From Azonexus sp. (GTDB taxonomy: Bacteria; Pseudomonadota; Gammaproteobacteria; Burkholderiales; Rhodocyclaceae): a stretch of 57,039 nt of DNA. Numbering within the stretch: the stretch's first letter is position 1; every line of letters starts with the position of its first letter. The notes under the pieces were generated by a model. It had not been told where the DNA came from, did not search any database, and saw only the letters and a program-made list of their open reading frames with translations. The stretch is taken from contig NZ_JAKLLH010000021.1 in the NCBI RefSeq assembly GCF_023150235.1, positions 1 to 57,039 on the forward strand. The letters are read 5' to 3'. The position numbers were made by a program, and so were the translations under genes. This document shows positions 6,002 to 54,879 of this stretch, in pieces.

Positions 6002-6017
6002 TCACGGTCGACCGTGA
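6002..6017. repeat. Palindromic repeat TCACGGTCGACCGTGA, copy 1
   Basis: An exact 16-bp palindrome. It is flanked by GGTTTTT on the left and GGCTTTTTCC on the right, as other copies are. It is part of the longer direct repeat that borders the Fic cassette. Confidence 0.9.
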
Positions 6018-6171
6018 GCAAGCGGCTTTTTCCCCGCTGGCGCCGCCCAAGGCGCCAGACCACAGGCGCCGCCCAAGGCGCTAGACCACAGGGGCCGGGG
6101 TGACGCCAGCAGGCGGTTCGACTGTCATGCGGTCAATTCTATGCGCAGATTTTTGCCCAGCGCTTTGGCGG
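6002..6171. repeat. Long direct repeat, left copy, with a truncated antitoxin 3' end
   Basis: It matches 8015-8159 almost base for base, apart from an extra internal 26-bp tandem unit here (GCGCCGCCCAAGGCGCCAGA and six more bases, repeated once). The last part, 6125-6171, is the 3' end of the HigA-like antitoxin gene including its stop codon on the minus strand. It is therefore a broken-off duplicate of the intact gene at 8113-8394. The two copies bracket the Fic gene. Confidence 0.8.
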
Positions 6172-6221
6172 GGCTAATGGGTGGGTGTCCCCATTATTGC
6201 ACGCGTGGCAGCATTTCCTTG

Positions 6222-6280
6222 AGGAGTGACAGATAGCGCGACATAATAGTGTCGTGCTTTTGTCACTCCTGCGCGACATA
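6222..6280 (+). promoter_or_regulatory. Candidate operator upstream of the Fic-family gene
   Basis: AGGAGTGACA (6222-6231) and TGTCACTCCT (6261-6270) are perfect 10-bp inverted repeats. A second, inner inverted repeat CGACA...TGTCG lies at 6239-6254. GCGCGACATA occurs twice as a direct repeat (6236-6245, 6271-6280). This dense symmetry 33-90 bp before a gene with an N-terminal winged-helix region suggests autoregulation. No experimental basis. Confidence 0.55.
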
Positions 6281-6312
6281 GCAGGCCAAAACCACCTCTC
6301 GAGGACGAACCG

Positions 6313-7728
6313 ATGCCGCGCACCACGACGAACGAAGAACTCCAACTCATCGAATCCATCGTTGCAAGCCATCCGAATGGCCTGGGTATTTCTGCGATTG
6401 AGGCGGAAATAGAGCACCGCCAAGGTAGCAAACTGGTCCGGCGCACACTGCAGCGCCGACTACAAAAACTGATTGACGATCAACGCTTGACCACCGAGGG
6501 GGAAAGCATTGCCTTGGTCTATAAAGCTGTCGCGGGCAGTCCAACAATTGAACTTGCGGGAGGCATTGGCTCCCCATCTTTGATTGGCGGCCATTTAGAG
6601 CTTTATGTACCAATTTCATCCGAGGGCAGCGCGATTCGAGATCAGGTCAGACGACCTCTGATGCATCGCATTCCAATAGGTTACCAGCGCAAATTCCTGG
6701 ATGCCTACCAGCCCGGAGAAACCTTCTACCTGCCTGAGCCACTGCGCGGCCAATTACATGAGATGGGCCGCACTTCCACCGATGAACGACCCGCTGGCAC
6801 TTATGCTCGAGATATCCTGGGCCGGCTACTGGTCGATCTATCGTGGGCATCATCGAAACTGGAAGGCAACACCTACAGCAGGCTCGACACCCAGAACCTG
6901 ATCGAATTCGGTCAAATTGCTCAAGGAAAGGATGTCATCGAAACTCAGATGATCCTGAACCACAAGGCAGCCATCGAGATGTTGATCGAGGATGCCAACG
7001 AAGTGGGCTTCGATGCCTTCACCTTCAAGAATTTACACGCTGTGCTCTCACAGGACTTGATGCGCGATCCGCAGGCCAGTGGTCGACTACGTCGCCGCCC
7101 GGTAGAAATCTCCGGCACCGTCTTCCATCCTTTGGCGATGCCTCAGGTCATCGAGGACTGCTTTATGCTGCTTCTGGAAAAAGCTGCGGCCATCCCCGAC
7201 CCTTTCGAGCAGGCTTTTTTCCTGATGGTGCAATTGCCCTATCTACAGCCATTTGAAGATGTGAATAAGCGGGTTTCACGGATCGGGGCCAACATCCCGC
7301 TGATCAAGCACAACCTATGCCCCTTGTCGTTCATCGATGTCCCCGAGTTGGCCTACATTGACGGCACCCTGGGTGTATACGAACTCAACCAGATTGAGCT
7401 ATTACGCGACGTATTTGTCTGGGCTTACGAACGCTCTTGTCAGCGCTACCTGGCCATTACCCAAACCATGGTCGAGCCCGACCCGCTGAAGATCCGTTAT
7501 CGCGAACAATTGATTCACGCTGTTCAGGCCGTCATCAAAAGCCTACGGCAGCCAACGCCAGCAGTGATTGCCGAACTGGCGAACGAGTATGCGGCCAAGC
7601 CTGATCAACCCGCCTTCTTTGAGATCCTCAAAGATGCCCTCCAACAACTGCATGAAGGCAGCATCGCTCGATACCGTCTTCGCCGTTCGGAGTTCATCGC
7701 CTGGCAGCAAGCTCAAGACCGGAGCTAA
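6313..7728 (+). CDS. Fic-family protein with winged-helix N-terminus and altered core motif
   Basis: A 471-residue cytoplasmic protein; GAGGA precedes the ATG. Residues 1-70 look like a winged helix (ISAIEAEIEH...RRTLQRRLQKLIDDQRL). Residues about 110-390 are a Fic domain. The inhibitory helix is S180-SKL-E184-G185-N, matching (S/T)xxxE(G/N). Residues 312-320 read QPFEDVNKR where canonical Fic enzymes have HPFxx(D/E)GNGR, so the catalytic His is Gln. The NKR-x-x-R end is kept. The C-terminal 90 residues are helical. Canonical Fic proteins transfer AMP from ATP to target proteins; without the His that activity is doubtful. It lies alone between two direct repeats, which suggests a mobile cassette. 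A symmetric operator-like region precedes it. Confidence 0.82.
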   Translation: MPRTTTNEELQLIESIVASHPNGLGISAIEAEIEHRQGSKLVRRTLQRRLQKLIDDQRLTTEGESIALVYKAVAGSPTIELAGGIGSPSLIGGHLELYVPISSEGSAIRDQVRRPLMHRIPIGYQRKFLDAYQPGETFYLPEPLRGQLHEMGRTSTDERPAGTYARDILGRLLVDLSWASSKLEGNTYSRLDTQNLIEFGQIAQGKDVIETQMILNHKAAIEMLIEDANEVGFDAFTFKNLHAVLSQDLMRDPQASGRLRRRPVEISGTVFHPLAMPQVIEDCFMLLLEKAAAIPDPFEQAFFLMVQLPYLQPFEDVNKRVSRIGANIPLIKHNLCPLSFIDVPELAYIDGTLGVYELNQIELLRDVFVWAYERSCQRYLAITQTMVEPDPLKIRYREQLIHAVQAVIKSLRQPTPAVIAELANEYAAKPDQPAFFEILKDALQQLHEGSIARYRLRRSEFIAWQQAQDRS

Positions 7729-7753
7729 TCGATTTCTCCCCCAAACGCAAAAA

Positions 7754-7795
7754 TCCCCCGTCCCCACCGCCGGTGAAGGCAGTGAGATCGGGGGA
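7754..7795 (-). terminator. Stem-loop downstream of the Fic gene with minus-strand T-run
   Basis: TCCCCCG (7754-7760) pairs with CGGGGGA (7789-7795), enclosing a smaller CACCGCCGGTG hairpin. On the minus strand the stem is followed by TTTTTGCG, so it could end transcripts arriving from the right. It may also mark the 3' end of the Fic transcript. Confidence 0.5.
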
Positions 7796-7883
7796 AGATC
7801 ATTCTGAATTGTCAGCCAGGGTCACGGCCCGCACCTGCCGCACCCAGTCCTGCAGCGCGATCAATTGCTCAAAACAAAAACAG

Positions 7884-7957
7884 GGTAGAGTAGAGAGCAG
7901 ACTTCCGCCTGCCCTCCCTCATCAAACCGTGCATGCGGTTTTCCCGCACACGGCTTT
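7884..7957 (-). ncRNA. Group II intron 3' fragment (domains V-VI)
   Basis: On the minus strand, 7957-7924 is a 34-nt hairpin reading AAAGCCGTGTGCGG, a GAAA-type loop, then CCGCATGCACGGTTT. The length, the AGC near the 5' end and the pairing fit group II intron domain V. GATGAGGGAGGGC and a further small hairpin follow, as expected of the DV-DVI junction. Everything upstream of about 7960 is replaced by the palindrome/antitoxin repeat, so only the 3' scrap of the ribozyme remains and it cannot splice or move. Confidence 0.62.
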
Positions 7958-8014
7958 ACGATGTTCTTCATGCCGAGCAGTAACGCTCCTGCCATTTCGG
8001 GTTTTTCCCCTTTT

Positions 8015-8030
8015 TCACGGTCGACCGTGA
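8015..8030. repeat. Palindromic repeat TCACGGTCGACCGTGA, copy 2
   Basis: An exact 16-bp palindrome downstream of the antitoxin gene. It is flanked by GGGTTTTTCC on the left and GGCTTTTTCC on the right. Confidence 0.9.
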
Positions 8031-8159
8031 CCAACCGGCTTTTTCCCCGCTGGCGCCGCCCAAGGCGCCAGACCACAGGGGGCCGGGGTGACGCCGGCTG
8101 GCGGTTCGACTGTCATGCGGTCAATTCAATGCGCAGATTTTTGCCCAGCGCTTTGGCGG
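8015..8159. repeat. Long direct repeat, right copy
   Basis: Counterpart of 6002-6171. Here it runs from the palindrome into the last 47 bp of the intact antitoxin gene, so this copy is the likely original and the left one the duplicate. Confidence 0.8.
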
Positions 8160-8394
8160 CACTGGTCAGCGTCGTCAGTGTCAGGCTGGTATCCGTTTCA
8201 TCCAGCAGCCGGTTCAGCGCCGCACGGCTGGTGTGCATTTTCTCGGCCAGTGCGGTTTTGGTCAGGTGCTGCGCTTTCATTTCTTGCGCGATTTGCCAGG
8301 CAACGACCCGTTTGATCGCCACGGCGGTGGCTTCTTCGAGTACCGCTTCCTCAGCGAGGAAATCATCAAAACTACTGCCGATGTGCTTGTTCAT
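8113..8394 (-). CDS. HigA/XRE-type antitoxin
   Basis: A 93-residue protein. A helix-turn-helix is visible at about residues 44-66 (LTKTALAEKMHTSRAALNRLL), then the usual LTLTTLTSAAKALGKNLRIEL tail. In such modules this protein binds the toxin and its own promoter. The ATG overlaps the toxin stop by 4 nt (ATGA), the standard toxin-first HigBA order. The toxin gene upstream is interrupted, so this may now be an orphan antitoxin. Its last codons are duplicated at 6125-6171. It has no signal peptide and is cytoplasmic. Confidence 0.88.
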   Translation of the reverse strand: MNKHIGSSFDDFLAEEAVLEEATAVAIKRVVAWQIAQEMKAQHLTKTALAEKMHTSRAALNRLLDETDTSLTLTTLTSAAKALGKNLRIELTA

Positions 8395-8902
8395 GAAAAG
8401 CTCCTGAGTTGTTGCAGACGCCGCTTGGCGACAGCGAGTTCTTCGGATGGTGTGGCCTGGGATTTCTTGAGGAAGCCGTGCAGCAACACCATCGTGTGAC
8501 CTGCCACGTTGAACAGGACCCGGGCAATCCGATCCGTCAGGTGAATACGGTTTTCCCAGAGGTCTTTCGCCATTTTGCAGACCAAGGGCATTTCCAGCAG
8601 CCTGCCGGCCTTAAGTTGGTCGGCTGCAAAATGACTGGAGCCGGTCCATATTTCCCCGGCTTTCGGCGCGAATGGGGCCACCATTCGCTTGAAACCCGTG
8701 AAAATCTGTCCTCGGCCCACTCATTTTTCGCTTCGACCCATTAAGCCCGACAGGCTGCTCATGGCCAACCAAACTGAACCGTCTTGATGTCTTCACCAAT
8801 CGAGCGTCGTTCGCTGGCGGGTAGAGTTTTCAGCCATTCCCGCACAGGCTCATTGCCGCTGTCGGAGGCGAAAAAGCGTACGTCTAGGGTTGGAGTACTC
8901 AT
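8391..8902 (-). pseudogene. RelE/HigB (Gp49-like) toxin gene split by an insertion
   Basis: The N-terminal half reads from the ATG at 8902: MSTPTLDVRFFASDSGNEPV, then REWLKTLPASERR and IKTVQFGWP. It then reaches a TGA at 8764-8762. The C-terminal half resumes at about 8595: MPLVCKMAKDLWENR, ARVLFNVAGHTMVLLHGFLKK, ELAVAKRRL. Together these make a normal Gp49-like mRNA-interferase toxin of about 110 residues. A 164-bp element with terminal inverted repeats (8596-8759) sits between the halves and brings the stop with it. A shorter frame, 8391-8720, runs from inside the element into the C-terminal half and could yield a truncated product, but no good start supports it. Probably non-toxic. Confidence 0.8.
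8596..8759. mobile_element. 164-bp MITE-like element inside the toxin gene
   Basis: The ends AGCAGCCTGCCGGCCTTAA (8596-8614) and TTAAGCCCGACAGGCTGCT (8741-8759) are inverted repeats matching at 17 of 19 positions. There is no room for a transposase. Removing it rejoins the two halves of the RelE/HigB coding sequence, which supports insertion. I could not define a clear target-site duplication. Confidence 0.72.
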
Positions 8903-8911
8903 GCGACCAAG

Positions 8912-8929
8912 TGTATCAATAATGGTACA
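8912..8929 (-). promoter_or_regulatory. Candidate operator of the toxin-antitoxin locus
   Basis: TGTATCAATAATGGTACA has symmetric TGTA...TACA ends and lies 10 bp upstream of the toxin start. This is where antitoxins of this type usually bind. The AT-rich stretch could also contain the -10 box. Confidence 0.45.
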
Positions 8930-9099
8930 AACCGACAAATCAACTTGGCGACGGCAGCTACCTGCCCCCTGGCAAGCCGGACAAGGCAGATGCCGTCATC
9001 ACAGTCGCCGCTGTACCGGAATTGTCGATGGCGGAGCGGAGGGCACTGCTGGTATGGCGCCCCCCCTGCCCCACCCCTGCTACAAAATGGAGCAGTTGT

Positions 9100-9633
9100 T
9101 CAATCCTTGAGCAGGCGAGCGGGCAACATGCGTTGCAGGATGGGCTGGCCGTGCAGCAGGTGGCGGATGACGCCGGCCAGATGCAGCGCGATCAGCGCGG
9201 CGCCGCTCCACACCAGCGCGAAGTGCAGCGACTTGAACAGGGCGTTGAGTTGTTCGTCCGGCTCGAACAGGCGCGGCAGCGGCCAGCCGAAGAACTTGAT
9301 CGGGTATTGGGTGAAGGCCGAGGCGAGAAAGCCGGCCAGCGGCGCCGCGAGCAGGAAGAGGTAAAGGCTGAGATGGGCGGCGGCGGCCAGCCGTGCCGAG
9401 GGGCCGCTTTCCAGCCCGGGCGGCGGCGGCGAACGGCGCCGCCAGGCGAGGCGCAGCGCGAGCAGCAGCAAGGAGAGCAGCCCGAGCGACTTGTGCAGGT
9501 TGTAGGCGGCGCTGCGTTCGGCGCCCTTGGGCAGATCGACCATCTGCCAGCCGAGCCAGAGCAGGCCGAGGATCAGGGCAGCGGAGAACCAGTGCAGCAG
9601 CATTGCCGGCCAGCGGTAGCGCAGGGTTTTCAT
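9100..9633 (-). CDS. Cytochrome b561-family membrane protein
   Basis: A 177-residue inner-membrane protein with four hydrophobic segments. Conserved His are visible in MLLHWFSAALILGLLWLGW, LHKSLGLLSLLLLALRL, AHLSLYLFLLAAPLAGF and LHFALVWSGAALIALHL, the four-helix di-heme layout of the b561 family. It moves electrons between the membrane quinone pool and a periplasmic partner. The start at 9633 overlaps the previous stop (ATGA), so it is the last gene of a four-gene operon with the beta-propeller, binding protein and PedF cytochrome. A role in alcohol-oxidation electron transfer is inferred from the operon. Confidence 0.9.
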   Translation of the reverse strand: MKTLRYRWPAMLLHWFSAALILGLLWLGWQMVDLPKGAERSAAYNLHKSLGLLSLLLLALRLAWRRRSPPPPGLESGPSARLAAAAHLSLYLFLLAAPLAGFLASAFTQYPIKFFGWPLPRLFEPDEQLNALFKSLHFALVWSGAALIALHLAGVIRHLLHGQPILQRMLPARLLKD

Positions 9634-10568
9634 CGAATCGCCACTCCCCAGGGTAATTCGCCGACGGCAATGTCGCCCAGCGCCTGGCGGCGGCCGGTGT
9701 CGATCACCGAGACCGTGCCCGAGCGGCCGTTGGCGACATAGAGCTTGTCGCCGGCGGCGGTCAGCGCCATGTTCCACGGCCGCTTGCCGACGGCGATGGT
9801 GGCCACTACCTGCTGGCTGGCGACGTCGATTTCCATCACCGAGGCGTCGCGGCCGTTGGAGACATAGACGCGCTGGCCGTCGGGATGGACGGCGATCCCG
9901 TTCGGATACTGGCCGACGGCGATTTCGGCGACGACGCGCTCGCTGGCGGTATCGAGCGCATAGACCTTGCCGGCCAGTTCGCAGGCGACGTAGGCGAGGC
10001 GCCCATCGGGCAGGAAGCCGATGCCACGCGGCCGCTGGCCGACCGCGATCTGGGCCACCTGGCGGCGCTGGCGCAGGTCGATCACGTCGACCTGTTCAGC
10101 CTCTTCAGCGCTGACGTAGAGCCAGCGGCCGTCGGGGCTGAACACCGCGTGTTCGGGGTTCTTGCCGGCGACCGCGATTTTGGCCACTTCGCGGCGGTCG
10201 ACCGTGGACACCAGGTGCACGGCGTTGTCGTCTTCGACCGCGACCGCCAGCAGCCGGCCGTCGGGTGACAGGCTGACGCCTTCGGGCGAGGCGCCGAGGC
10301 GCAGGCTGTGCAGGCTGCGGCCGCTGGCCCGGTCGAGGATCAGCAGGCTGCCACTCTTGCCGTCGCTGAGGTAGAGCTCGCGGGCGCCAACGGCGATGCC
10401 GCGCGGCCGCTGGCCGACCGCCACCGTCTGCAGCACCTGGTCGCTGGCGGTGTCGATCAGGCTCAGGCTGGCCGATTTTTCGTTGGGCACGTAGGCGGTT
10501 TCGGCGGCCGCCGCCAGCGGCCCGAACAGGCCGGACAACAGCAAGGCGACTACGGGTTTGCGCATCAT
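9630..10568 (-). CDS. PQQ-catabolism-associated YVTN beta-propeller protein
   Basis: A 312-residue exported protein. Signal peptide: KPVVALLLSGLFGPLAAAA. About seven repeats follow of the form AYVPNEKSASLSLIDTAS, IAVGQRPRGI, LYVSNGRDASVMEID, KLYVANGRSGTVSVID, typical of YVTN/NHL propellers. This family (TIGR03866-type) is found with quinoprotein alcohol dehydrogenases; its exact task is unknown. Two ATGs (10568 and 10565) follow an AGGAGG site, so the start is certain to within one codon. The segment at 10195-10204 contains the palindrome core CGGTCGACCG in coding sequence (STVDRRE). Confidence 0.88.
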   Translation of the reverse strand: MMRKPVVALLLSGLFGPLAAAAETAYVPNEKSASLSLIDTASDQVLQTVAVGQRPRGIAVGARELYLSDGKSGSLLILDRASGRSLHSLRLGASPEGVSLSPDGRLLAVAVEDDNAVHLVSTVDRREVAKIAVAGKNPEHAVFSPDGRWLYVSAEEAEQVDVIDLRQRRQVAQIAVGQRPRGIGFLPDGRLAYVACELAGKVYALDTASERVVAEIAVGQYPNGIAVHPDGQRVYVSNGRDASVMEIDVASQQVVATIAVGKRPWNMALTAAGDKLYVANGRSGTVSVIDTGRRQALGDIAVGELPWGVAIR

Positions 10569-10578
10569 CGCAACCTCC

Positions 10579-11427
10579 TCAGGCGGGTAGATGGGTGATC
10601 CCGTAGCGGGCGAAGATCGCTGCCAGGGTTCCATCCTGTTTCAGTTCGGCGAGGGCAGCAGCGAGCGCGTCGGCGAGTTCGGCCTCCTCGACCTTGACCG
10701 CCATCCCCAGCGGCCAGCCGTCGGTCGGCAGTTCGGGCAGACGGAAGGCGTCGAGCACCAGCTCGCTGCGCCCGGCCACCGCCGCCTCCAGCTCGCCGCG
10801 CGGTGCCAGCACGGCGGCGATTTGCCCGTCGGCCAGCGCGGCGGCCGCAGCGCCGACGCTCTTGAAATGCACCACCTGCTCGCGCAGCCGGCCGTTGAGC
10901 ACCGAGAGCAAGAAGGCATCGGCCAGGGTCGCGGTTTCGACGCCGATTTTCTCGCGGGTGAATACCTCCAGCGCCACGGCTGCCGAGCCTTGCGCCGGCT
11001 GCGCCACGCGCCCCGGATGGCGGGCCAGGGCCAGGGTTTCGCGGTGATAGGGCGCAAAGATGCGGACCTTGTCGTTGGCAGCGGCGAGCTTGCGGTCGAC
11101 CGGCACATGCAGCATCACGTCGGCGGGCTGGGTGCCGAGGTAATGGCCCTTCCAGACCATGTTGCGCAGGTCGTCGCTCATGTCTTCATCGGCGGTGTAG
11201 GCGACGATGTCGGCAGCGACACCGAGACGGGCGGCCAGCGCCCGGCCGAGGTCGGCGTCGATACCCTTGCCGCCGGCCAGCGAATAGGGTGCGAAATCCT
11301 TGTACACCGCCACCCGCAGCCGCCCCTGCTGGCGAATCCGCGCCAGCGCATCGGCCCGCGCCGGCAGGCTGGCGGCCAGCGGCAGCGCGACCAGGCCCTT
11401 GAGCCAGAGGCGGCGATCATTCTTCAT
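10579..11427 (-). CDS. Quinoprotein dehydrogenase-associated periplasmic binding protein
   Basis: A 282-residue family-3 solute-binding-like protein. The N-terminus MKNDRRLWLKGLVALPLAAS has a Tat-like RR and a signal peptide ending near ARA. Then come LRVAVYKDFAPYS, GIDADLGRALAARLG and a closing DGWPLGMAVKVEE...LAAIFARYGI, as in TIGR03871 and MoxJ/XoxJ-type proteins. These accompany PQQ dehydrogenases rather than ABC transporters; binding to the dehydrogenase or its cofactor has been proposed. No permease is adjacent, which agrees with that. The start at 11427 lies inside the end of the PedF gene, an 11-bp overlap. Confidence 0.86.
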   Translation of the reverse strand: MKNDRRLWLKGLVALPLAASLPARADALARIRQQGRLRVAVYKDFAPYSLAGGKGIDADLGRALAARLGVAADIVAYTADEDMSDDLRNMVWKGHYLGTQPADVMLHVPVDRKLAAANDKVRIFAPYHRETLALARHPGRVAQPAQGSAAVALEVFTREKIGVETATLADAFLLSVLNGRLREQVVHFKSVGAAAAALADGQIAAVLAPRGELEAAVAGRSELVLDAFRLPELPTDGWPLGMAVKVEEAELADALAAALAELKQDGTLAAIFARYGITHLPA

Positions 11428-11845
11428 GGACGGTCTCCAGCCAGGCACGGATCGCCCACATCGCTTCCTGGCTCAGCGTGCCTTCAAACGGCGGCATGTA
11501 CACCCGGCCGTCGCGCACCGAGCCCTTGCGGATGCGCTGCAAAAAAACCTCGTCGCCCTCGTCGCCCTGCGGCAGGTAGCGCAGGTCGGGCGCGATCCCG
11601 CCGGAAATCCCGCCCAGGCCGTGGCAGCGGGCGCAGTTCTGGTTGTAGGCGGAATCGCCGATGCGAATCGCGGTGGCGTCCTTACGGTAGGGATTGCTGG
11701 CCAGGAACTCGGCGCCCAGCGCCTTGAGGCCGGTGGTGTCGACCGCCTGCGGCACGACGTCGCCGTGCGCCAGAACCTGGCTGGCGGTCACGGCGATGGC
11801 GAGCGAGGCGGCAATCAGGCTGAGCTTGCGGAACGGATGGGTCAC
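11417..11845 (-). CDS. pedF: Cytochrome c-550 PedF
   Basis: A 142-residue periplasmic cytochrome. The start is a GTG at 11845, with AAGGAGA about 6 nt upstream; no ATG fits. Signal peptide: SLIAASLAIAVTASQVLA. One heme motif, CARCH, sits at about residue 71, with a Met ligand candidate in VYMPPFEGTLS. PedF-type c550 is linked to quinoprotein ethanol dehydrogenases as an electron acceptor. It is the first gene of a four-gene minus-strand operon. A near-consensus sigma-54 promoter lies 47-62 bp upstream (11892-11907), which fits control by the divergent activator. Confidence 0.9.
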   Translation of the reverse strand: MTHPFRKLSLIAASLAIAVTASQVLAHGDVVPQAVDTTGLKALGAEFLASNPYRKDATAIRIGDSAYNQNCARCHGLGGISGGIAPDLRYLPQGDEGDEVFLQRIRKGSVRDGRVYMPPFEGTLSQEAMWAIRAWLETVHEE

Positions 11846-11891
11846 GGTTGTCTCCTTGTAATAGGTTGGGATGAAGCAGTGCCCCCACCTC

Positions 11892-11907
11892 TGCAAGCGC
11901 CATGCCA
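11892..11907 (-). promoter_or_regulatory. Sigma-54 promoter of the pedF operon
   Basis: On the minus strand TGGCAT-N5-TTGCA (consensus TGGCAC-N5-TTGCA), 47 bp before the pedF start. Both the invariant GG and GC elements are present. Confidence 0.72.
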
Positions 11908-12104: not shown

Positions 12105-14144
<2,040 letters not shown>

Positions 14145-16132: not shown

Positions 16133-16190
16133 CATTTTTGTCTTTTTAGCGAGTCGACCGTGACAGCCAGCGTTTTTGCCCGATTTTCCC
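16133..16190. repeat. Decayed copy of the palindromic element over a gene start
   Basis: CATTTTTG, then GAGTCGACCGTGACAG (right half intact), then CGTTTTTGCCC. This is the flank-palindrome-flank layout of the intact copies. The GTG start of the Ppx-like gene (16160) lies inside the right half, so the repeat supplies that gene's first codons. Confidence 0.55.
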
Positions 16191-22933: not shown

Positions 22934-22960
22934 CTTTCCGTCCGCCGTTTTTGCCGAAAA

Positions 22961-22976
22961 TCACGGTCGACCGTGA
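22961..22976. repeat. Palindromic repeat TCACGGTCGACCGTGA, copy 3
   Basis: An exact 16-bp copy between the rplI terminator and dnaB, 46 bp before the dnaB start. It is flanked by CGTTTTTGCC on the left and GGCCTTTTTCC on the right. Its place in the dnaB leader could affect that gene's expression. Confidence 0.9.
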
Positions 22977-23021
22977 CTATTGGCCTTTTTCCTGCCAGAC
23001 CACCCGCCCCCTCCGCCGATC

Positions 23022-27740: not shown

Positions 27741-27870
27741 GGTGAGCCTTTCTGCTGATGGGGGCGATTCGATTGTCGGCAATCGGCCGGGCAGGGTCAA
27801 GCGAGGAGGGAGGTCCGGAAGACTCCTCTTCCGAGAAAGCCCTCCCCTGCCCTTCCCGCAATCCTGTTGG

Positions 27871-27916
27871 AAAAAAGCCCCTTTTTCACGGTCGACCGTG
27901 AAAAAGGGGCTTTTTT
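27871..27916. repeat. 46-bp perfect palindrome containing TCACGGTCGACCGTGA (copy 4)
   Basis: The 16-bp palindrome at 27886-27901 is extended on both sides without mismatch. Left arm: AAAAAAGCCCCTTTTT before the core; right arm: its exact reverse complement, ending TTTTTT. It sits between the ppk1 3' end (27931) and the bcp start (27740). With an A-run on one side and a T-run on the other, it would form a strong terminator hairpin in either direction. Confidence 0.93.
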
Positions 27917-27930
27917 CCGCCAATGGGAGA

Positions 27931-42787: not shown

Positions 42788-43450
42788 ATGTTCGGGATCA
42801 AGAAACTTCTTTTTCGCGACCAGCCGGCAACGCAACTTGTCGACGATGTGCGTACCGGCCTGGAGCAGTGGCGGGATTCGGCAACCCCGGGATTCGACGA
42901 GGTCCATTTTCATAGCCGCTACGTAGTCGTCGATATTGCCACCCGTAGTCGTCAGGCAGGTAGCGATGAACTGCAGTCGATCAGTGCCACGGTAGTCAGG
43001 CGGGGAGCCATCCGTCCGGCGGAATCGTGCTTCGTCGATTTCACCGGCGAGCTCGATGCCGACACGGTCGACCGGCAATTGCTGGCTTTTTTACTCTTCC
43101 TGGGCAAGGCGCCACTGGCAACCTACCACGTTGCCTACGTCGAACCTTTCCTGCAGCGCGTCATGCGCGAACGACTGGGCGTCGATTTTCAGTCGCAATG
43201 GATCGATCTTGCCTGGCTGCTGCCCTCCATGTTCGACGAAAAATCGCACACCCCCCTGCCGCTCGACCGCTGGCTGGAAATTTTTGCCCTGGAAGCCGGT
43301 GACGGACGCCGCGATCCGATGGAAAATGCTCTGTTGATTGCCCGCCTGCTACAAATGTTGCTGGTGCGAGCCACCGGCAAGGAAGTGGATACCGCCGCCA
43401 AGCTAATCGCCGAATCGCAGGCAGCAAGCTTCCTGCGTCGCACCCATTGA
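42788..43450 (+). CDS. DnaQ-like exonuclease-fold protein with degenerate active site
   Basis: A 220-residue protein with the fold pattern of DEDD exonucleases. The first motif reads VVVDIATRS (D49-I-A51) where active enzymes have D-x-E. The second reads ATYHVAYVEPFLQRVM, without the usual HNxxFD. The third (DPMENALLIARLLQ) lacks the His-x-Ala-x-x-Asp form. It is therefore probably a non-catalytic relative, perhaps a regulator of the fused exonuclease two genes upstream or a partner of the nucleotidyltransferase. It begins 5 bp after the previous stop. Confidence 0.82.
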   Translation: MFGIKKLLFRDQPATQLVDDVRTGLEQWRDSATPGFDEVHFHSRYVVVDIATRSRQAGSDELQSISATVVRRGAIRPAESCFVDFTGELDADTVDRQLLAFLLFLGKAPLATYHVAYVEPFLQRVMRERLGVDFQSQWIDLAWLLPSMFDEKSHTPLPLDRWLEIFALEAGDGRRDPMENALLIARLLQMLLVRATGKEVDTAAKLIAESQAASFLRRTH

Positions 43451-46184: not shown

Positions 46185-46260
<76 letters not shown>

Positions 46261-46284
46261 AGAAAGAAATGTAGCTCAGTCCGG

Positions 46285-46360
46285 GTCCCCATCGTCTAGA
46301 GGCCTAGGACACCGCCCTTTCACGGCGGTAACCGGGGTTCGAATCCCCGTGGGGACGCCA
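46285..46360 (+). tRNA. tRNA-Glu(TTC), first copy
   Basis: 76 nt with encoded CCA. Acceptor GTCCCCA...TGGGGAC, anticodon loop CTTTCAC (TTC), T-loop GGTTCGAATCC. Confidence 0.97.
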
Positions 46361-46373
46361 AGCTTTTAAGTGC

Positions 46374-46450
46374 GGAGTGGTAGTTCAGTTGGTTAGAATA
46401 CCGGCCTGTCACGCCGGGGGTCGCGGGTTCGAGCCCCGTCCACTCCGCCA
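46374..46450 (+). tRNA. tRNA-Asp(GTC), first copy
   Basis: 77 nt with encoded CCA. Acceptor GGAGTGG/CCACTCC, anticodon GTC in CCTGTCACG, T-loop GGTTCGAGCC, discriminator G. Confidence 0.97.
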
Positions 46451-46522
46451 ACGATTTACGGGTTGCAGCGAAAACTGCTTTCCGGGTCGCAAGACCAAAA
46501 CGTAGTCTGGCTGTCTCCTCGT

Positions 46523-46598
<76 letters not shown>

Positions 46599-46629
46599 AG
46601 CGACCAGACTGCACCGTAGTTTTGTCCGG

Positions 46630-46705
46630 GTCCCCATCGTCTAGAGGCCTAGGACACCGCCCTTTCACGGCGGTAACCGGGGTTCGAATCCCCGTGGGGA
46701 CGCCA
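46630..46705 (+). tRNA. tRNA-Glu(TTC), second copy
   Basis: Identical in sequence to the copy at 46285-46360, including the preceding TCCGG. Confidence 0.97.
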
Positions 46706-46717
46706 AGCTTTAAGCGC

Positions 46718-46794
46718 GGAGTGGTAGTTCAGTTGGTTAGAATACCGGCCTGTCACGCCGGGGGTCGCGGGTTCGAGCCCCGTCCACTCCGCCA
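46718..46794 (+). tRNA. tRNA-Asp(GTC), second copy
   Basis: Identical to the copy at 46374-46450. The spacer to tRNA-Glu is nearly the same in both sets (AAGCTTTTAAGTGC and AAGCTTTAAGCGC). Confidence 0.97.
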
Positions 46795-46868
46795 ACCGTT
46801 TCAAAGCGCGCCGGGACGCCTGATTCCCGGTCGCAGGCAATCGCACCTGCAAGCAACGATCAAGATGC

Positions 46869-46945
46869 GGAGTGGTAGTTCAGTTGGTTAGAATACCGGC
46901 CTGTCACGCCGGGGGTCGCGGGTTCGAGCCCCGTCCACTCCGCCA
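46869..46945 (+). tRNA. tRNA-Asp(GTC), third copy
   Basis: Identical in sequence to the other two Asp genes. Last gene of the array. Confidence 0.97.
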
Positions 46946-48762: not shown

Positions 48763-48810
48763 GCATTGCAGCCCCGCCAGCCGGCGACCATCGTCGGTTT
48801 TTCGCTGTTT

Positions 48811-48826
48811 TCACGGTCGACCGTGA
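48811..48826. repeat. Palindromic repeat TCACGGTCGACCGTGA, copy 5
   Basis: An exact 16-bp copy in the mltD downstream region, with GGTTTTTCGC on the left. The rest of the interval to 48999 shows no gene. Confidence 0.9.
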
Positions 48827-48999
48827 CAAGCCGCCAAAACCGCCGAAGACCGTCCCACAGGCCCGGTCGAGCGGCATCCCGGATTCGTAAGGCCAGATCG
48901 GAATTGAGGTTTGCAGCAAAATTGCCGCATCGGCAAAAGCCCAAGCGGCGGGATGCTTGCGGCACATGGTCGGGGAGTGCCGCCCCCGGCAGTTTCTTC

Positions 49000-49236
49000 T
49001 CAGGTAGCCGTAACGGCCCGGCGCCATACTGTTCGACGCCCCACAGTGCGTGCCTCCAACTCGCCGCCGGCGGCCAGCCGTTCAAGTGCGGCCAGCGTCA
49101 CCTCAGGAGATTCCTCGCCGCCTGCCCAATTGATCCACCAGTGATGGATTCCTTCCAAAGTATCCGCTGCCTGCGGCCGGGCCGCCAGGTAAGCGCGAAT
49201 CTGTTGCACCACTTGTTCGATTGCTTGCTCGTCCAT
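49000..49236 (-). CDS. Conserved-looking small protein, function unknown
   Basis: A 78-residue acidic/helical protein. The ATG at 49236 has GGGAGGTTC upstream, a good ribosome-binding site. Central IHHWWINWAGGEESPEVTLA and a C-terminal ALERLAAGGELEARTVGRRTVWR resemble a small winged-helix ending (helix, then a basic beta wing). No name comes to mind. It stands alone between mltD and the ABC operon, separated from the latter by 102 bp on the same strand. Confidence 0.65.
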   Translation of the reverse strand: MDEQAIEQVVQQIRAYLAARPQAADTLEGIHHWWINWAGGEESPEVTLAALERLAAGGELEARTVGRRTVWRRAVTAT

Positions 49237-49338
49237 CGCTGAACCTCCCGAATTTCATTGCGGCATTTTGCCGCAAACTGCCGGCCGGCACCGATTCGCC
49301 GACGGCTCGGCAAGCTGGCCGTCGGTCGGCGTGGTTTT

Positions 49339-51363
49339 TTACGCGAAGTGGCAGTGGACCGTGTGCGTCGTCGACACCGACTGCGCCGGCGGGTATTCCT
49401 CCCGGCAGCGCGGCGCCGCCAGCGGGCAGCGCGGGTGGAAGTGGCAGCCGCGCGGCGGTTGCGCCGGCGACGGGGTTTCGCCCGGTAAATGCGGCGCCGC
49501 CCGGCCGGCCTCCAGACGCGGCTGCGGCACCGCCGCGAGCAGCGCGCGGGTGTAGGGATGACGCGGCGCGCGCAGGATCTCGTCGGCCTGCCCGGCCTCG
49601 ACGATGCGCCCGAGGTACATCACCGCGATATCGTGGGCGAGATACTCGACCACCGCGAAATTGTGCGTGATGAACAGGTAGGCAACGCCCAGTTCGGCCT
49701 GCAGCGCCTTGAGCAGGTTGAGAATCTGCGCCTGCACCGAAACGTCGAGCGCCGAAGTCGGCTCGTCGCAGACCAGCACCTGCGGCTGCACCGCCAGCGC
49801 GCGGGCAATTGCGATCCGCTGGCGCTGGCCGCCGGAAAATTCGTGCGGATAGCGCCCGGCAGCAGCGGCCGGCAAGCCGACCTGCTGCAGCAAGGCGGCA
49901 ACCGCCGCTGCCCGCTGTTCCGCCCGCGCCTTCTCCCCCACGCCACCGCCCTCGCTGCCCAGCGCCAGCATCCCCTCGGCGATGATTTCGCCGACACGCA
50001 GGCGCGGGTTGAGCGAAGCGAACGGGTCCTGGAAGACCATCTGCAGTTGCCGCCGCGCCGAGCGCAGCGCGCGGCCGCCAAGGCCGACCAGTTCCAAGTC
50101 GCCGAGCCGCACCGAACCGGCCGTCGGCGGCTGCAGTTGCAGCAGCGCCTTGCTGACCGTGGTCTTGCCGCAGCCGGACTCGCCGACCAGTGCCAGAGTG
50201 CGCCCCGGCGAAATCGCCAGGGAAACGCCGTCGACCGCGTAAACCTGGCCGACGGTGCGCTGCAGCAAGCCCTTGCGGATCGGGAAATGCACTTTCAGGT
50301 CGCGCACCGTCAGGCACGGCGCCGGCCCGACGGGCGTGGTTTCGCCGCCAGCCGGAGGCGTCGGGGGCAGCGCCGCCGTCCCCTGCCAGTGGCAACGGAC
50401 ACGGTGCCCGGGCGCGACCTCGCGCCATTCCGGCGCCTGTTCGCGGCAACGCGGCATCGCCTGCGGGCAACGCTCGGCAAAGCGGCAGCCGGGCGGCATC
50501 GCGTCGAGCCCCGGCACCTGCCCCGGTATCGTCTGTAAAGGCCGGCCGCGCCGCGCGGCATCGGGCAAGGCGGCAAACAAGGCCTGGCTGTAGGGATGGC
50601 GCGGGGCGGTGAAGAAGTCGGCGCGGGGTGCGATTTCGACCAGCTCGCCGGCGTACATCACGCCGATCCGCTGCGCCATCCGCGCGACCACGCCGAGGTC
50701 ATGGGTGATCAGCAGCATCGCCATGCCACGGTCGACCTGCACTTGCGCCAATAAATCGAGAATCTGCGCCTGCACGGTGACGTCGAGCGCGGTTGTCGGT
50801 TCGTCGGCGATCAGCACCTGCGGCTCGCCGGCCAGCGCCATCGCGATCATCACCCGCTGCTTCATGCCGCCCGACAGCTGGAAGGGATACTCGTCGAGCC
50901 GCCGCACGGGGTCGGCAATCCCGACCTGGCGCAGCAATTCCCGCATCCGCTCGCGTAGCCCTTCACGCAACTGCGCACGGCCAGCGCCGGCCAGATCGGG
51001 ATGCCGCGCCAGCACCTCGCCGATCTGCTCGCCGACACTCAGCACCGGATTGAGGCTGGTCGCCGGCTCCTGGAAGATCATCGCCAGCTGCCGCCCGCGC
51101 AGCTCGCGCATCGCGGTCTCCGGCGCGCTCAACAGCTCCTCGCCAGCCAGCCGCACCGAGCCGCCGAGCACCCGCCCGGCCGCCGGCAAGAGGCGCAGCA
51201 AGGCCTGCGCGGTGACCGACTTGCCGCAGCCGGACTCGCCGAGCAGGGCAAAGGTTTCGCCGGCCGCAAGCGAAAAAGAGACCGACTCGACCGCGACCTG
51301 CAGGCTGCGGCCGGTGGCAAAGCCAAGGCGGAGATTTTTGACTTCGAGTAGCACAGTTAACAC
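49339..51363 (-). CDS. Double-ATPase subunit of a peptide-type ABC importer (YejF-like)
   Basis: A 674-residue protein of two fused nucleotide-binding domains, each with an oligopeptide-type C-terminal extension. NBD1: GESGCGKS (Walker A), LSGGMKQR (signature), [13 protein letters not shown] (Walker B). NBD2 from about residue 365: [29 protein letters not shown]. Both have the Cys-containing iron-sulfur-like tails ([17 protein letters not shown] and [18 protein letters not shown]). It energises peptide uptake with the permeases at 53320-55853. The start is unclear: GTG codons at 51363 and 51354 exist, but neither has a ribosome-binding site. A two-gene insert separates it from the permeases. 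Confidence 0.92.
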
Positions 51364-51400
51364 TGGAATCGGTTACGCAAGGGCAAGGCGCCAACTATGC

Positions 51401-52000
51401 TCATAGCAAGCCCTGACGATGAGCCTCAGACCAGACAAAGGGAGACTTTCTCTTCAGAAAGTCAGCAGACAATTGATATTCAAGGTATTCCTGATACCAG
51501 AGGGCACGTAGATCACGGCACGGCGCATCGTCCAGACCAAGCCGTTCAATCGTTTCTTCCACCAGGCGCATTGGGCGAGCCTCCAGCTCTGGATTGGGGT
51601 AGATGTGCCCGGTAGAAAGCTGTAACCGGAACAAATCGCGGGCGAGACAAAACGGGTCCAGCACATCGCTGTATTCGCGTTTTCGACTATTCATTATCGA
51701 GCATGCCAGTCGATAGTTATGCCACTCGTAGGACAACCCGGCATCACTTGATTTGGCAATAAAATGGTCGACACTGCAGCCCCCCGTCACGCGTTCAATA
51801 AAAACGCCAAGGTATGCGCAAACCCCGCCATATGCCTGATGCAAGTCAGTCAGACAGGCACGCCAATAGGGGTTAATCGAGGCATTCGGCGGCAAGGGTT
51901 GATCGAGTTGAATCCCTTTCTGACGAAGATGAGCCAAGCCTTTCTGGCGTACCTTATGATCAAAATCAGCAGGTTCTCGCTGCTCAGCTACAGGAATCAT
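51401..52000 (-). CDS. HNH-type nuclease of a Septu-like system (PtuB-like)
   Basis: A 199-residue protein. The HNH core is SVDHFIAKS (H79) and YEWHNYRLACSIMNSRKREY (N95 and N104), preceded by GGVCAYLGVFIE, where related enzymes have CxYC. This layout matches PtuB-type and similar phage-defence HNH nucleases. The ATG at 52000 overlaps the ATPase stop in an ATGA, so I prefer it to a GTG at 52009. Known Septu systems pair such a nuclease with an ATPase to stop phages, by DNA or RNA cleavage; here that is by analogy. AT-richer than the ABC genes on both sides. Confidence 0.82.
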   Translation of the reverse strand: MIPVAEQREPADFDHKVRQKGLAHLRQKGIQLDQPLPPNASINPYWRACLTDLHQAYGGVCAYLGVFIERVTGGCSVDHFIAKSSDAGLSYEWHNYRLACSIMNSRKREYSDVLDPFCLARDLFRLQLSTGHIYPNPELEARPMRLVEETIERLGLDDAPCRDLRALWYQEYLEYQLSADFLKRKSPFVWSEAHRQGLL

Positions 52001-53292
52001 TGCAGCCACCCCTGCTTTTCACCCACGTAACGCCAGCGAATCCAGAATGGATCGGTGTCACCCAACAGCCGCCGCAATTGCTCATCCAGTGCTGTCGCGC
52101 GGTCATGGTCAATCACTTTTTCCGAAAGAATTTCAGCAGCGTCCTGCAACACTTCTTCCGCCTCCAATGAACGGGCGCAGCCCAAATCAAAGGCCTCGCT
52201 GATCAACCAACGCGAGACATCGCCCAAACGCACAAAAGGCCGCTTCTTGAACTCAACGGTCGGTTGCAGCCCCTCCTGCTCGACGATCAAGTCAAGATCA
52301 AACCAGGCGTCCTGGACTTCGTCAAAACGAGGCTCGACTGAAGCCATGATCAAAGGCGAATGGGTCACAGCAAGCACCTGGACCTCTGCACTGGCAATCA
52401 ACGATTGCGTGACATCCAAGAGCGCCGGAATAATTCGGCGTTGCCACTTGGGATGGAGGTGAGACTCCACCTCATCAATCAAAAACACGACCTGATTGGT
52501 TGTTGTTTCGGAGAGCAACTTTGCCGCTTTTTGGTGCTCCTCCCAACACCACACCAGGAAATAGGCCAGTGCAATAATGCGACGCATGCCCGAAGAGGCA
52601 TGGACGACTGCCACATCCCCCCCATAAGGCATTCGGACGGTCGGCATGTCACGAACGTCGTCAAGACTGATTCTGGTCAATTCTCCTGGCGACAGCTTTT
52701 CCTCCGAAGCTGGCGACAGCACATCAAGTGCGGCACATAAATTTTTGAAAGCGCCACCACCTTCCTTTTGCCAACTCGCCCAATCCCGAATCAAGCCATT
52801 GCACAACCATTTGCCTTCGGTGCCTGGCAAGCCATCCCAGACTTGTGCAGGACTAAAGACGTAAGCGGGGGGGCGATCCTGAACATCCACCCCTCCCTGA
52901 GTTCGCCAGTAATTGCGGGCAGGGTCCCACACCGCAAATCCACCATCGGCCATCGCGTAGAAAATCAGCCCAGGATTTGCCGGTCGTCCTTGCTGCCCTG
53001 TCCAGGCTTCATCACGCCGCGCATAGCTGCTCAAATACTCAACGGGCTTGGACTTTCCGGTAAAGGAAAAATCAATCGTAGCCTCACCCTCTCCACGCGG
53101 TAGCGCCTTTTTCCCTGAGGTGAGTTTGGGATTAACCTCGGCAGGCCACTTCCTGGTCATCGACCACCATGCAATATCGAGCAAAAAACTCTTGCCCAAG
53201 CCGTTATCGCCAGTAATCAGATTTAACCGCTTACCAAACTCCAGTTCAGTATCAGCCGGGCCGATATTCGTTAGTTTGAGGTGTTTGAGCAT
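51997..53292 (-). CDS. AAA ATPase of a Septu-like system (PtuA-like)
   Basis: A 431-residue cytoplasmic ATPase of the SMC/OLD-like AAA_15/21 class. Seen: LKLTNIGPADTELEFG; Walker A GDNGLGKS at residues 28-35; the signature-like HASSGMRRIIALAYFLVW; Walker B VVFLIDEVESHLHPKWQRRI; and the downstream VLAVTHSPLIMASV switch His. No TOPRIM or long coiled coil, so PtuA rather than OLD. GGGGAGG precedes the ATG. It lies 27 bp after the permease stop and overlaps the HNH gene. Together they form a compact insertion in the ABC operon. Confidence 0.85.
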   Translation of the reverse strand: MLKHLKLTNIGPADTELEFGKRLNLITGDNGLGKSFLLDIAWWSMTRKWPAEVNPKLTSGKKALPRGEGEATIDFSFTGKSKPVEYLSSYARRDEAWTGQQGRPANPGLIFYAMADGGFAVWDPARNYWRTQGGVDVQDRPPAYVFSPAQVWDGLPGTEGKWLCNGLIRDWASWQKEGGGAFKNLCAALDVLSPASEEKLSPGELTRISLDDVRDMPTVRMPYGGDVAVVHASSGMRRIIALAYFLVWCWEEHQKAAKLLSETTTNQVVFLIDEVESHLHPKWQRRIIPALLDVTQSLIASAEVQVLAVTHSPLIMASVEPRFDEVQDAWFDLDLIVEQEGLQPTVEFKKRPFVRLGDVSRWLISEAFDLGCARSLEAEEVLQDAAEILSEKVIDHDRATALDEQLRRLLGDTDPFWIRWRYVGEKQGWLQ

Positions 53293-53319
53293 GCTGCCTC
53301 CCCTTTAATACTCATATTT

Positions 53320-54879
53320 CTAAGCCATCCTCGGATCAAAGGCGTCGCGCACCGCGTCGGCGAACAGATTGGCCGCCAGCACCAGCACGAACATGGTCGC
53401 GAAGGCTGCTGCCAGCGACCACCAGACCACCGGTTCGCGGCCCAGCTCAAGGCGGGCGTTGTTGATCATCGTGCCGAAACTGGTCATCGTCGGATCGACG
53501 CCGATCCCGACATAGGAGAGCACCGCCTCGGCCAGCACCAGCCCGGAAAAATCCATCACCAGCGCGATCACCACGATGTGCATCAGGTTGGGCAGGATGT
53601 GACGGCCGATGATCCGTGCGTGCGAGACGCCAAAGGCCTGCGCCGCCTGGATGTATTCGAGTTCGCGCAGCTTCAGCGTCTCGCCGCGCAGCAGCCGGCA
53701 CAGCCCGGTCCAGGAAGTCACCCCGAGGATCGCGCAGAGCGCCAGCAGGCGCAGGTCGGCGCGCTCGGCGGCGGTGGCGAACCACTGCGGATGGGTGTCG
53801 ATCACCACCTGCATCATCAGCACCGCAGCAGCGATCAGCAGCACGCCGGGAATCGAGTTGAGCACGGTATAAAGGTACTGGATCAGGTCGTCCACCCAAC
53901 CCCGGAAATAGCCGGCGGCGATCCCCAGCAGCACCGCCAGCGGCAGCATCACCAAGGTCGTCACCAGGCCGATGATCAGGCCGGTGCGGATACTCTTGAG
54001 CACCTGGTAGAGCACGTCCTGGCCGACCTTGTCGGTGCCGAAGACGTGGTAGTCGGCGGCCAGCGCGAACAAGGGCGGCAGCAGCAAGGCGAGCAGGAGC
54101 AACACCGCCAGCACCGCGTCCCAGGCCAGGCCGCCGCCAGCCGCGCCCCCTGCCCCGCCGGTTTCGCCACGCAACAAGGCCCAGGCCCCGGGCAGCGCCG
54201 GTTTTTGCCCGCTTTCACGGTCGACCGTGAAAACCTGCGCTTTTGCCCCCGCCTCTGGCGCCACTGGCCGTGCCATTTGCGACGAGTACTCGGCGCTGGC
54301 GGCCAAGGCCAGCGCCCGCTGCCGTAAGTAGCTCAGCAGCGCCAGGGTCAGCAAAGTCCAGCCGAGGAAGCCGAGCGCGGCGTAGCGGAAGGCGGTGAAT
54401 CCGACATCGGCGGCAAGCTCGGCTTCGCGCTCGCCGAGGTGGGCGCCGCCGTACTTCAGTCGGGGCCGTTCGCGGACCGTGCCAACGCCGGCAACCTCGC
54501 GGGTTTCCTTGGCCAGCAGCCGGGTCGCGAACGGCGCCGAATAGGTTTTTTCATTGCGCGTGCGCAGCGGCGTCGCCAGCGCGTCGAGCAGCGACAGCAC
54601 CTCGACCGCGTACTGCGCTGAGGCCTTACTACCCGCCCCCGCCGGCCCGCTCGCCGCCGGCAGCCGCAGGCGGTAATGCAGCGAATCGAGCAATCCGACC
54701 AGCGCAAAGCAGAGCAAGACAGTCGCCGCCGCCATCCCCGGCCGGCTCGCCCCGACCCGCTGCCAGGCGCTCGCCAGCGGCGGGCTGCGGCGCGCCAGCA
54801 GGGCCAGGCCGAGGGCGGCGGCAAAGAGCAGCCAGACCAGCAGGTCGGACCAGAGGACGACGATCTGGAAGGGCATCAT
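53320..54879 (-). CDS. ABC importer permease (YejE-like) with long N-terminal extension
   Basis: A 519-residue inner-membrane permease. The C-terminal 300 residues are a normal BPD permease (YHVFGTDKVGQDVLYQVLKS, EAA loop EYIQAAQAFGVSHARIIGRHILPN, SYVGIGVDPTMTSFGTMINN). The first 210 residues are an extension with three further hydrophobic segments and a periplasmic-looking part (KTYSAPFATRLLAKETREVA). The linker after it (residues about 218-224) is coded by the palindromic repeat, read as FTVDRES. The start overlaps the upstream stop (ATGA). Confidence 0.9.
   Translation of the reverse strand: MMPFQIVVLWSDLLVWLLFAAALGLALLARRSPPLASAWQRVGASRPGMAAATVLLCFALVGLLDSLHYRLRLPAASGPAGAGSKASAQYAVEVLSLLDALATPLRTRNEKTYSAPFATRLLAKETREVAGVGTVRERPRLKYGGAHLGEREAELAADVGFTAFRYAALGFLGWTLLTLALLSYLRQRALALAASAEYSSQMARPVAPEAGAKAQVFTVDRESGQKPALPGAWALLRGETGGAGGAAGGGLAWDAVLAVLLLLALLLPPLFALAADYHVFGTDKVGQDVLYQVLKSIRTGLIIGLVTTLVMLPLAVLLGIAAGYFRGWVDDLIQYLYTVLNSIPGVLLIAAAVLMMQVVIDTHPQWFATAAERADLRLLALCAILGVTSWTGLCRLLRGETLKLRELEYIQAAQAFGVSHARIIGRHILPNLMHIVVIALVMDFSGLVLAEAVLSYVGIGVDPTMTSFGTMINNARLELGREPVVWWSLAAAFATMFVLVLAANLFADAVRDAFDPRMA
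54215..54230. repeat. Palindromic repeat TCACGGTCGACCGTGA, copy 6, inside a gene
   Basis: An exact 16-bp copy within the permease gene, flanked by GGTTTTTGCC and CGCTTTTGCCCC as in intergenic copies. It is in frame and codes for part of a linker between the N-terminal extension and the permease domain. Confidence 0.9.

What the first reader, a model, noticed from the sequence alone, without database searches (positions are those of the whole stretch)
6002..54230. A repeat family built on TCACGGTCGACCGTGA
Six exact copies occur at 6002, 8015, 22961, 27886, 48811 and 54215. The 10-bp core CGGTCGACCG also occurs at 1593, 10195 and 40718. By chance a given 16-mer is not expected even once in 57 kb. 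Most copies share a flank of GGTTTTT about 10 bp to the left and GGC(T)TTTTCC to the right, so the unit is about 50 bp. I know no named element with this layout. It could be a mobile palindrome, a binding site of a chromosome-organising protein, or a bidirectional terminator.
Basis: seen in the sequence. Interest (0 to 1): 0.76.

Follow-up and report, generated by a model that had tools for sequence, protein, structure and literature searches.

The report
Genome-wide palindromic DNA mark in Azonexus
A short symmetric DNA word flanked by precisely spaced A/T runs is scattered hundreds of times through some Azonexus bacteria in species-specific spellings, and it looks like a landing site for one unknown DNA-binding protein, perhaps a "self" label for taking up DNA.

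Summary
The repeat is real. The 16-mer occurs 6 times in the window and 97 times in the 3.42-Mb genome (reversed control 0). It is not a copied repeat but a symmetric site of about 44 bp: core GGTCGACC, arms GTGAAA, a G/C-rich spacer, and an A or T tract 11-13 bp outside each edge of the 16-mer. In 51 sites studied, positions 12 and 13 are A/T in all 102 flanks; A or T is chosen independently on the two sides. The same 16-mer in 68 other loci never has both tracts. With tract spacing included, the window genome holds 239 sites and relative G061 254; other sampled genera of the order hold 0-3. Within the genus counts run from 0 to 254, with different arm "dialects" around one core. Sites lie mostly between genes, persist at orthologous places, and are spread evenly along G061. 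REP/RAYT mobility is disfavoured; terminator use fits a subset. Best reading: binding sites of one dedicated, symmetric, DNA-bending protein. I favour an uptake-signal-like self mark (about 0.4) narrowly over a chromosome-binding protein. No partner protein was found, and comEC status did not track site number.

The parts
5986..6033 (.). site 1: T-tract, spacer, TCACGGTCGACCGTGA (6002-6017), spacer, T-tract
7999..8046 (.). site 2 (8015-8030); duplicate of site 1 in a 94-bp, 89% direct repeat
22945..22992 (.). site 3 (22961-22976), between a separate terminator-like hairpin and dnaB; the segment is absent from G030 and G087
27870..27917 (.). site 4 (27886-27901), perfect extended palindrome A-tract..T-tract, next to the polyphosphate kinase gene; arms differ symmetrically from G061
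48795..48842 (.). site 5 (48811-48826), T-tract..A-tract form, so no T-run leaves it on either strand
54199..54246 (.). site 6 (54215-54230), inside the linker of an ABC permease gene (-), read as FTVDRE
43062..43077 (.). degenerate site, 3 mismatches, A/T tract on one side only
16135..16165 (.). half-site-like sequence (GTCGACCGTGA arm with T-tracts); significance not tested
   Evidence: family D4

Best explanation
Each copy is a two-fold symmetric binding site of one dedicated protein that grips about 44 bp and bends it. It reads the core GGTCGACC and arms in the major groove, and the narrow minor groove of A or T tracts about 10 and 20 bp from the centre. Shown: the anatomy, over-representation, restriction to one genus in the genomes sampled, dialects, position conservation against G061 and even spread in G061. 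Most likely role (inferred, about 0.4): a self-recognition signal for natural DNA uptake, a symmetric counterpart of Haemophilus USS and Neisseria DUS. It would accumulate wherever sequence is permissive, drift into species dialects with its receptor, and decay when the receptor is lost. Some copies double as terminators.
For: Flank columns 12-13 are A/T in 102 of 102 flanks and column 11 in 98%, around a G/C-rich spacer with nothing clear further out. Both tracts are present in 49 of 51 own sites, against 0 of 68 outside loci with the identical 16-mer. Tract letters are independent left and right (91 sites, p=1.0). Spaced-tract pattern: 239 and 254 sites in G000 and G061, reversed control 0; 0-3 in the 393 genomes of other genera sampled. 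Commonest arms outward of GGTCGACC: GTGAAA (G000 57 sites, G061 37), GTCAAA (G030, 9 sites), GCAG (G087, 4 sites), GCG/GCA (G031, 7 sites), and GCT by inspection of the list in G063/G064. One linker site in G030, G008 and G087 has a different spelling in each. All 11 G000 sites for which I had a clear G061 orthologous interval keep a site, in some cases inside unalignable flanks. 39 of 51 (G000) and 23 of 34 (G061) sites are intergenic, against about 15% of sequence. Spread is even and spacing near random in G061. USS also has a core plus AT tracts (passages); DUS has dialects around a fixed core, permissive positions and terminator pairing (passages).
Against: USS and DUS are not palindromes; two-fold symmetry suggests a dimeric DNA-binding protein instead. 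There are 254 sites in 3.57 Mb, far fewer than the 1,465 USS and 1,892 DUS copies quoted for smaller genomes (passage). comEC has a match in all 25 genomes tested, but looks split, truncated or cut at a contig end in 3 of 14 site-rich and 4 of 11 site-poor ones, so it does not track sites. The dialect is not pure: both arms carry the commonest triplet in 51 of 57 sites of G000 but only 20 of 37 in G061, 4 of 9 in G030, 2 of 4 in G087 and 2 of 7 in G031. No receptor or other partner was identified. There are no uptake data.
Confidence: 0.42

Rival explanations
1. Binding sites of a cytoplasmic dimeric DNA-binding protein that organises or insulates the chromosome (nucleoid-associated, transcription roadblock or domain marker), gained and lost repeatedly within the genus.
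For: Two-fold symmetry; about 240-290 sites per genome in G000 and G061; sites avoid coding sequence, and none of 51 G000 sites lies between divergent genes; phased A/T tracts fit DNA wrapping; conserved positions.
Against: No origin or terminus bias in G061, unlike parS, Noc/SlmA sites or matS (recalled). A dialect shift over roughly 100-250 sites and repeated loss are unusual for such a protein (judgement). 3 of 34 G061 sites are between divergent genes.
Confidence: 0.38
2. Intrinsic, often bidirectional, terminators whose hairpin tip is fixed.
For: Frequent 3' intergenic position. A-left/T-right copies are perfect palindromes in 13 of 30 cases versus 14 of 61 for other configurations (p=0.054). 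The tract downstream on the coding strand is T in 11 of the 16 codirectional sites that have one (not tested). Arms changed symmetrically at two orthologous loci. Only 2 of 51 sites have another strict perfect-stem terminator within 80 bp by my scan.
Against: Tract letters are independent of each other; 12 of 57 G000 sites are T-left/A-right, with no T-run in either direction; 12 of 51 lie inside called genes; at site 22961 a separate, imperfect terminator-like hairpin stands beside the site and is kept in G061, G030 and G087. A terminator needs neither the fixed 16-mer nor a tract on both sides.
Confidence: 0.1
3. A mobile palindromic element (REP/RAYT-like or miniature inverted-repeat element) that inserts as a unit of about 45-75 bp.
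For: In G030 the permease-linker site coincides with about 15 extra codons. Site 22961 lies in roughly 75 bp absent from G030 and G087. Extragenic bias; patchy distribution. G000 itself has two Y1_Tnp matches, and 6 of 14 site-rich genomes have at least one. A few sites ride on longer dispersed repeats.
Against: Copies share no sequence beyond the constrained columns and have A or T tracts at random. The ABC-linker site in G030 and G008 has no length change against siteless G002 and G034. Y1_Tnp is not detected in G061, G087, G030, G008, G018, G029, G067 or G065, and is present in 5 of 11 site-poor genomes. No target duplication was established.
Confidence: 0.08

Closest known systems
Uptake signal sequence (USS) of Pasteurellaceae
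   Same: Strong short core plus A/T tracts at helical-turn spacing; many copies; more than one spelling (passages of PMC7811141, PMC12616744, PMC3630211)
   Different: USS is asymmetric with tracts on one side, and far more numerous; uptake role proven there, untested here
DNA uptake sequence (DUS) dialects of Neisseriaceae
   Same: Invariant core with species-specific arms, permissive positions, stem-loop/terminator association, some genomes without it (passages of PMC3630211)
   Different: DUS is a short continuous motif without separate A/T tracts (passage) or dyad symmetry
parS / Noc (NBS) / SlmA (SBS) / matS chromosome sites (recalled)
   Same: Short, mostly palindromic sites in tens of copies bound by a dedicated dimer; the parS half-site TTTCACG resembles the arm
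   Different: Half-site spacing differs from parS by the inserted GTCGAC; no ori or ter bias here; phased A/T tracts and dialects
REP/BIME elements with RAYT transposase
   Same: Short extragenic palindromes in 100s of copies, lineage-specific
   Different: No Y1 transposase match in 8 of 14 site-rich genomes; copies do not look related by descent

Membership tests
Uptake signal (USS/DUS) | genome-wide over-representation of one short motif | tested here: met
   97 exact, reversed control 0; the one palindrome of 12-14 bases found enriched in 400 kb of G061
Uptake signal (USS/DUS) | conserved core with lineage dialects | tested here: met
   samples for G030, G087 and G031 are small (9, 4 and 7 sites)
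Uptake signal (USS/DUS) | core with phased A/T tracts (USS) | tested here: met
   on both sides instead of one
Uptake signal (USS/DUS) | asymmetric motif in very high number | tested here: not met
   palindrome; 254 sites in 3.57 Mb
Uptake signal (USS/DUS) | site number tracks competence machinery | tested here: inconclusive
   comEC match in 25 of 25; split or incomplete in some of both classes, partly at contig ends
Uptake signal (USS/DUS) | biased uptake of DNA carrying it | not testable with these tools
   needs an uptake assay
REP/RAYT | cognate Y1 transposase in the genome | tested here: not met
   no match in 8 of 14 site-rich genomes; present in 6 of 14, G000 included
REP/RAYT | copies alike over the whole element | tested here: not met
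   no shared sequence beyond constrained columns in 51 sites
Intrinsic terminator | T-run 3' of the hairpin in the direction of transcription | tested here: not met
   not met as a rule: 12 of 57 G000 sites have no outgoing T-run; T downstream in 11 of 16 codirectional sites; met for a subset
parS/NBS/SBS/matS | distribution tied to origin or terminus | tested here: not met
   quarters 13/19/20/21, terminus half 39 of 73, p=0.64; assumes the terminus lies opposite dnaA
parS/NBS/SBS/matS | cognate ParB/Noc/SlmA/MatP protein | not tested

The most novel reading that the evidence does not exclude
An uptake-signal system outside Pasteurellaceae and Neisseriaceae, and a palindromic one: a symmetric, DNA-bending self mark with phased A/T tracts on both sides that has split into several dialects within one genus and been lost (or gained) many times.
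Probability: 0.38. Interest if true: 0.88.

Novelty: new variant of a known kind. Interest (0 to 1): 0.72.

Why it matters
A genus with 0 to about 250 copies of one mark, in several dialects and with sister species differing almost completely (G006 with 1, G030 with 155), is a natural experiment on how genome-wide recognition marks arise, change spelling and vanish. If it is an uptake signal, it would be a further independent case and a palindromic one. If it is a chromosome site, it points to an undescribed DNA-bending protein.

Tried and rejected
Rfam found no RNA family overlapping the sites (gathering threshold). The 16-mer and ACGGTCGACCGT are in no paper of the held library. GGTCGACC is in 584 papers; I saw only the 20 listed and read none of them. 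Searches for Dechloromonas with repetitive extragenic palindromic, Dechloromonas with uptake sequence, Azonexus with natural transformation, and Rhodocycl with overrepresented, palindrom and intergenic gave nothing relevant. PMC1852404 and PMC2267715 do not mention Dechloromonas, Azoarcus or Rhodocycl- (term search in main text). "Not in print" rests on these searches only.

Rejected or disfavoured: ori/ter-linked organiser; REP/RAYT; terminator as the general function; convergent-gene specificity (22 of 51 in the G000 exact copies, but 6 of 34 against 3.5% background in the even G061 sample); comEC as the partner trait. On comEC, Fisher p=0.35 was computed with 2 of 14 versus 4 of 11 damaged; one search added G067, making 3 of 14. 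Viral contigs: 12 stretches, none with both tracts, 2 with one. The parS half-site resemblance is treated as chance because the spacing differs.

Weak points: genes were called with my own codon-usage script, with starts uncertain, and the G000 background was measured on stretches chosen around sites. The Fisher p for tracts printed mixed two definitions and is not used. The tree is gyrB only, 29 of 30 genomes asked (G025 had no match), 7 of 26 inner branches open. Lists were cut by the tools: 50 of 97 G000 exact sites were listed and I fetched stretches for 45 of them, which with the 6 in the window makes 51 of 97 analysed. The G031 sample holds about 5 kb of masked N.
Full report
1. Observation. 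The genome holds 97 exact copies, and 287 with up to 2 mismatches (exact ones included), against 0 and 4 for the reversed control.

2. Anatomy. I took 51 of the 97 exact sites with flanks (45 from 40 fetched stretches, 6 from the window). Counting outward from the 16-mer edge, columns 1-3 are 86-88% A/T (A favoured), 5-8 are 72-90% G/C, 11-13 are 98-100% A/T, 15-19 are 74-80% G/C, and nothing clear follows. The tract is A-type in a little under half of the flanks and T-type in the rest, independently on the two sides. By gene direction there is no strong rule: the downstream tract is T in 11 of 16 codirectional sites, 12 of 22 convergent ones read on the plus strand, and 4 of 10 inside genes. 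Swapping a whole tract is not how copies of one ancestor diverge; it is what a minor-groove or bendability requirement allows. The A/T segments lie about 10 and 20 bp from the dyad.

3. Control. The same 16-mer in 68 loci of other organisms has the tract triplet on 4 of 136 flanks and never on both sides. Of 12 loci that I set apart by name (Azonexus, Dechloromonas, a Rhodocyclaceae and a Burkholderiales record), 9 have both; the 3 without are L016 (Dechloromonas), L029 and L050. Own sites: 49 of 51. Twelve viral-contig stretches: none with both.

4. Distribution. With the pattern WWW-N14-GGTCGACC-N14-WWW over 399 genomes sampled from the order, the six genus members scored 239, 254, 51, 46, 12 and 8. 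Seven genomes of other genera in the family scored 0, and the other families 0-3, with reversed controls 0-7. Across 76 genomes of the genus, counts run from 0 to 254 with controls 0-2. On a gyrB tree of 29 genomes the high-count label (15 rows) needs 8 changes (at least 5 forced by well-supported branches); shuffled labels average 9.9 and are as low in 90 of 500 shuffles, so it is hardly clustered. Sister species can differ almost fully, e.g. G030 (155) and G006 (1).

5. Dialects. The commonest arms outward of GGTCGACC read GTGAAA (G000, 57 tract-flanked sites in my sample; G061, 37), GTCAAA (G030, 9 sites), GCAG (G087, 4 sites) and GCG/GCA (G031, 7 sites). By inspection of the list they read GCT in G063 and G064. 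In 320 kb of G031 a palindrome count found CGCGGTCGACCGCG 7 times against 0.01 expected. Both arms carry the commonest triplet in 51 of 57 sites of G000, 20 of 37 of G061, 4 of 9 of G030, 2 of 4 of G087 and 2 of 7 of G031, so outside G000 many sites are mixed or degenerate.

6. Placement and evolution. In G000 39 of 51 sites are intergenic; in an even 400-kb sample of G061 it is 23 of 34; intergenic sequence is about 15% (crude gene calls). Spacing over the first 52 tract-flanked G061 sites is near random (CV 0.95), and the chromosome quarters hold 13/19/20/21 exact copies. For the 11 G000 sites for which I had a clear G061 orthologous interval, a site is present in all 11. These are L107, L125, L122 (two), L135 (two), L128-3341, and window 22961, 27886, 48811 and 54215. 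Several have 1-3 mismatches, and 48811 is matched by interval only. L128-2636 is a probable twelfth, judged by position only. In L107 and L125 the flanks are unalignable around a kept site. At L122-2702 and window 27886 the two arms changed symmetrically, so self-pairing was largely kept. The L135 sites lie in or beside a dispersed repeat of about 500 bp also seen in L110, L141 and L159, so a few copies have multiplied as passengers.

7. Gains. The site in the ABC permease (window 54215) lies in a linker that is longer in G000, G061 and G030 than in seven relatives without a site there. The excess is about 15 codons in G030 over G006, G087 and G008; G010 is intermediate. Site 22961 lies in roughly 75 bp between a terminator-like hairpin and dnaB that G030 and G087 lack. 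But the ABC-ATPase linker site has the same length in G030 and G008 as in siteless G002 and G034 (G087 is three residues longer), and a different spelling in each of the three. So both insertion and substitution seem to create sites. This fits selection or biased import of a recognised word better than one mobile unit.

8. Mechanism. Shown: a symmetric, tract-flanked word kept at orthologous places and re-spelled by species. Inferred: a protein reader that bends DNA. The role is open. The nearest architectural parallel is USS (core plus AT tracts; passages), and the nearest evolutionary parallel is DUS dialects (passages). Against uptake: palindromy, low number, and comEC status unrelated to site number. 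comEC is split, truncated or cut at a contig end in G008, G018 and G067 (site-rich) and in G034, G089, G017 and G006 (site-poor); for G018 and G006 this may be an assembly break. A cytoplasmic chromosome-binding dimer is nearly as likely, though without ori/ter bias. Copies with A-tract left and T-tract right may also terminate transcription.

9. RAYT test. Y1_Tnp has no match in 8 of 14 site-rich genomes, but two in G000 and at least one in 6 of 14 site-rich and 5 of 11 site-poor genomes. Presence of a Y1 transposase therefore does not track the sites.

For the cited papers (PMC7811141, PMC3630211, PMC12616744, PMC1852404, PMC2267715) I saw search listings and passages only, not whole texts.

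Noticed in passing
window 5973-8394: A Fic-domain gene (6313-7725) is flanked by direct repeats (5973-6066/7986-8079, 89%; 6091-6171/8079-8159, 96%), the first pair carrying the palindromic site; the right-hand copy overlaps the 3' end of an HTH gene (8113-8394, -). It looks like a local duplication around a toxin-like cassette.
   Followed up: partly
window 7885-7958 (-): Rfam group II intron match (55 bits) beside site 8015; I did not look for the intron body or its reverse transcriptase. Possibly a remnant.
   Followed up: no
window 46185-46945: tRNA array Ala-Glu-Asp, Ala-Glu-Asp, Asp with near-identical copies.
   Followed up: no
window 2997-3105 and 3318-3426: 109-bp direct repeat, 90% identical, 321 bp apart.
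   Followed up: no
L246 (G034), L247/L248 (G089), L249 (G017), L242/L243 (G008), L251 (G067): comEC appears split or truncated in several congeners; in G089 its two parts lie about 32 kb apart.
   Followed up: partly
L135, L110 (G000); L141, L159 (G061): A dispersed repeat of about 500 bp (69-87% identical matches) carries or borders some of the palindromic sites.
   Followed up: no
sites in L120, L122, L126, L137, window 27886 and others: 27 of 91 tract-flanked sites are symmetric at 10 or more of 11 flank positions, 13 with A left/T right and 4 with T left/A right, hinting at template-switch correction of quasi-palindromes as well as terminator use.
   Followed up: partly
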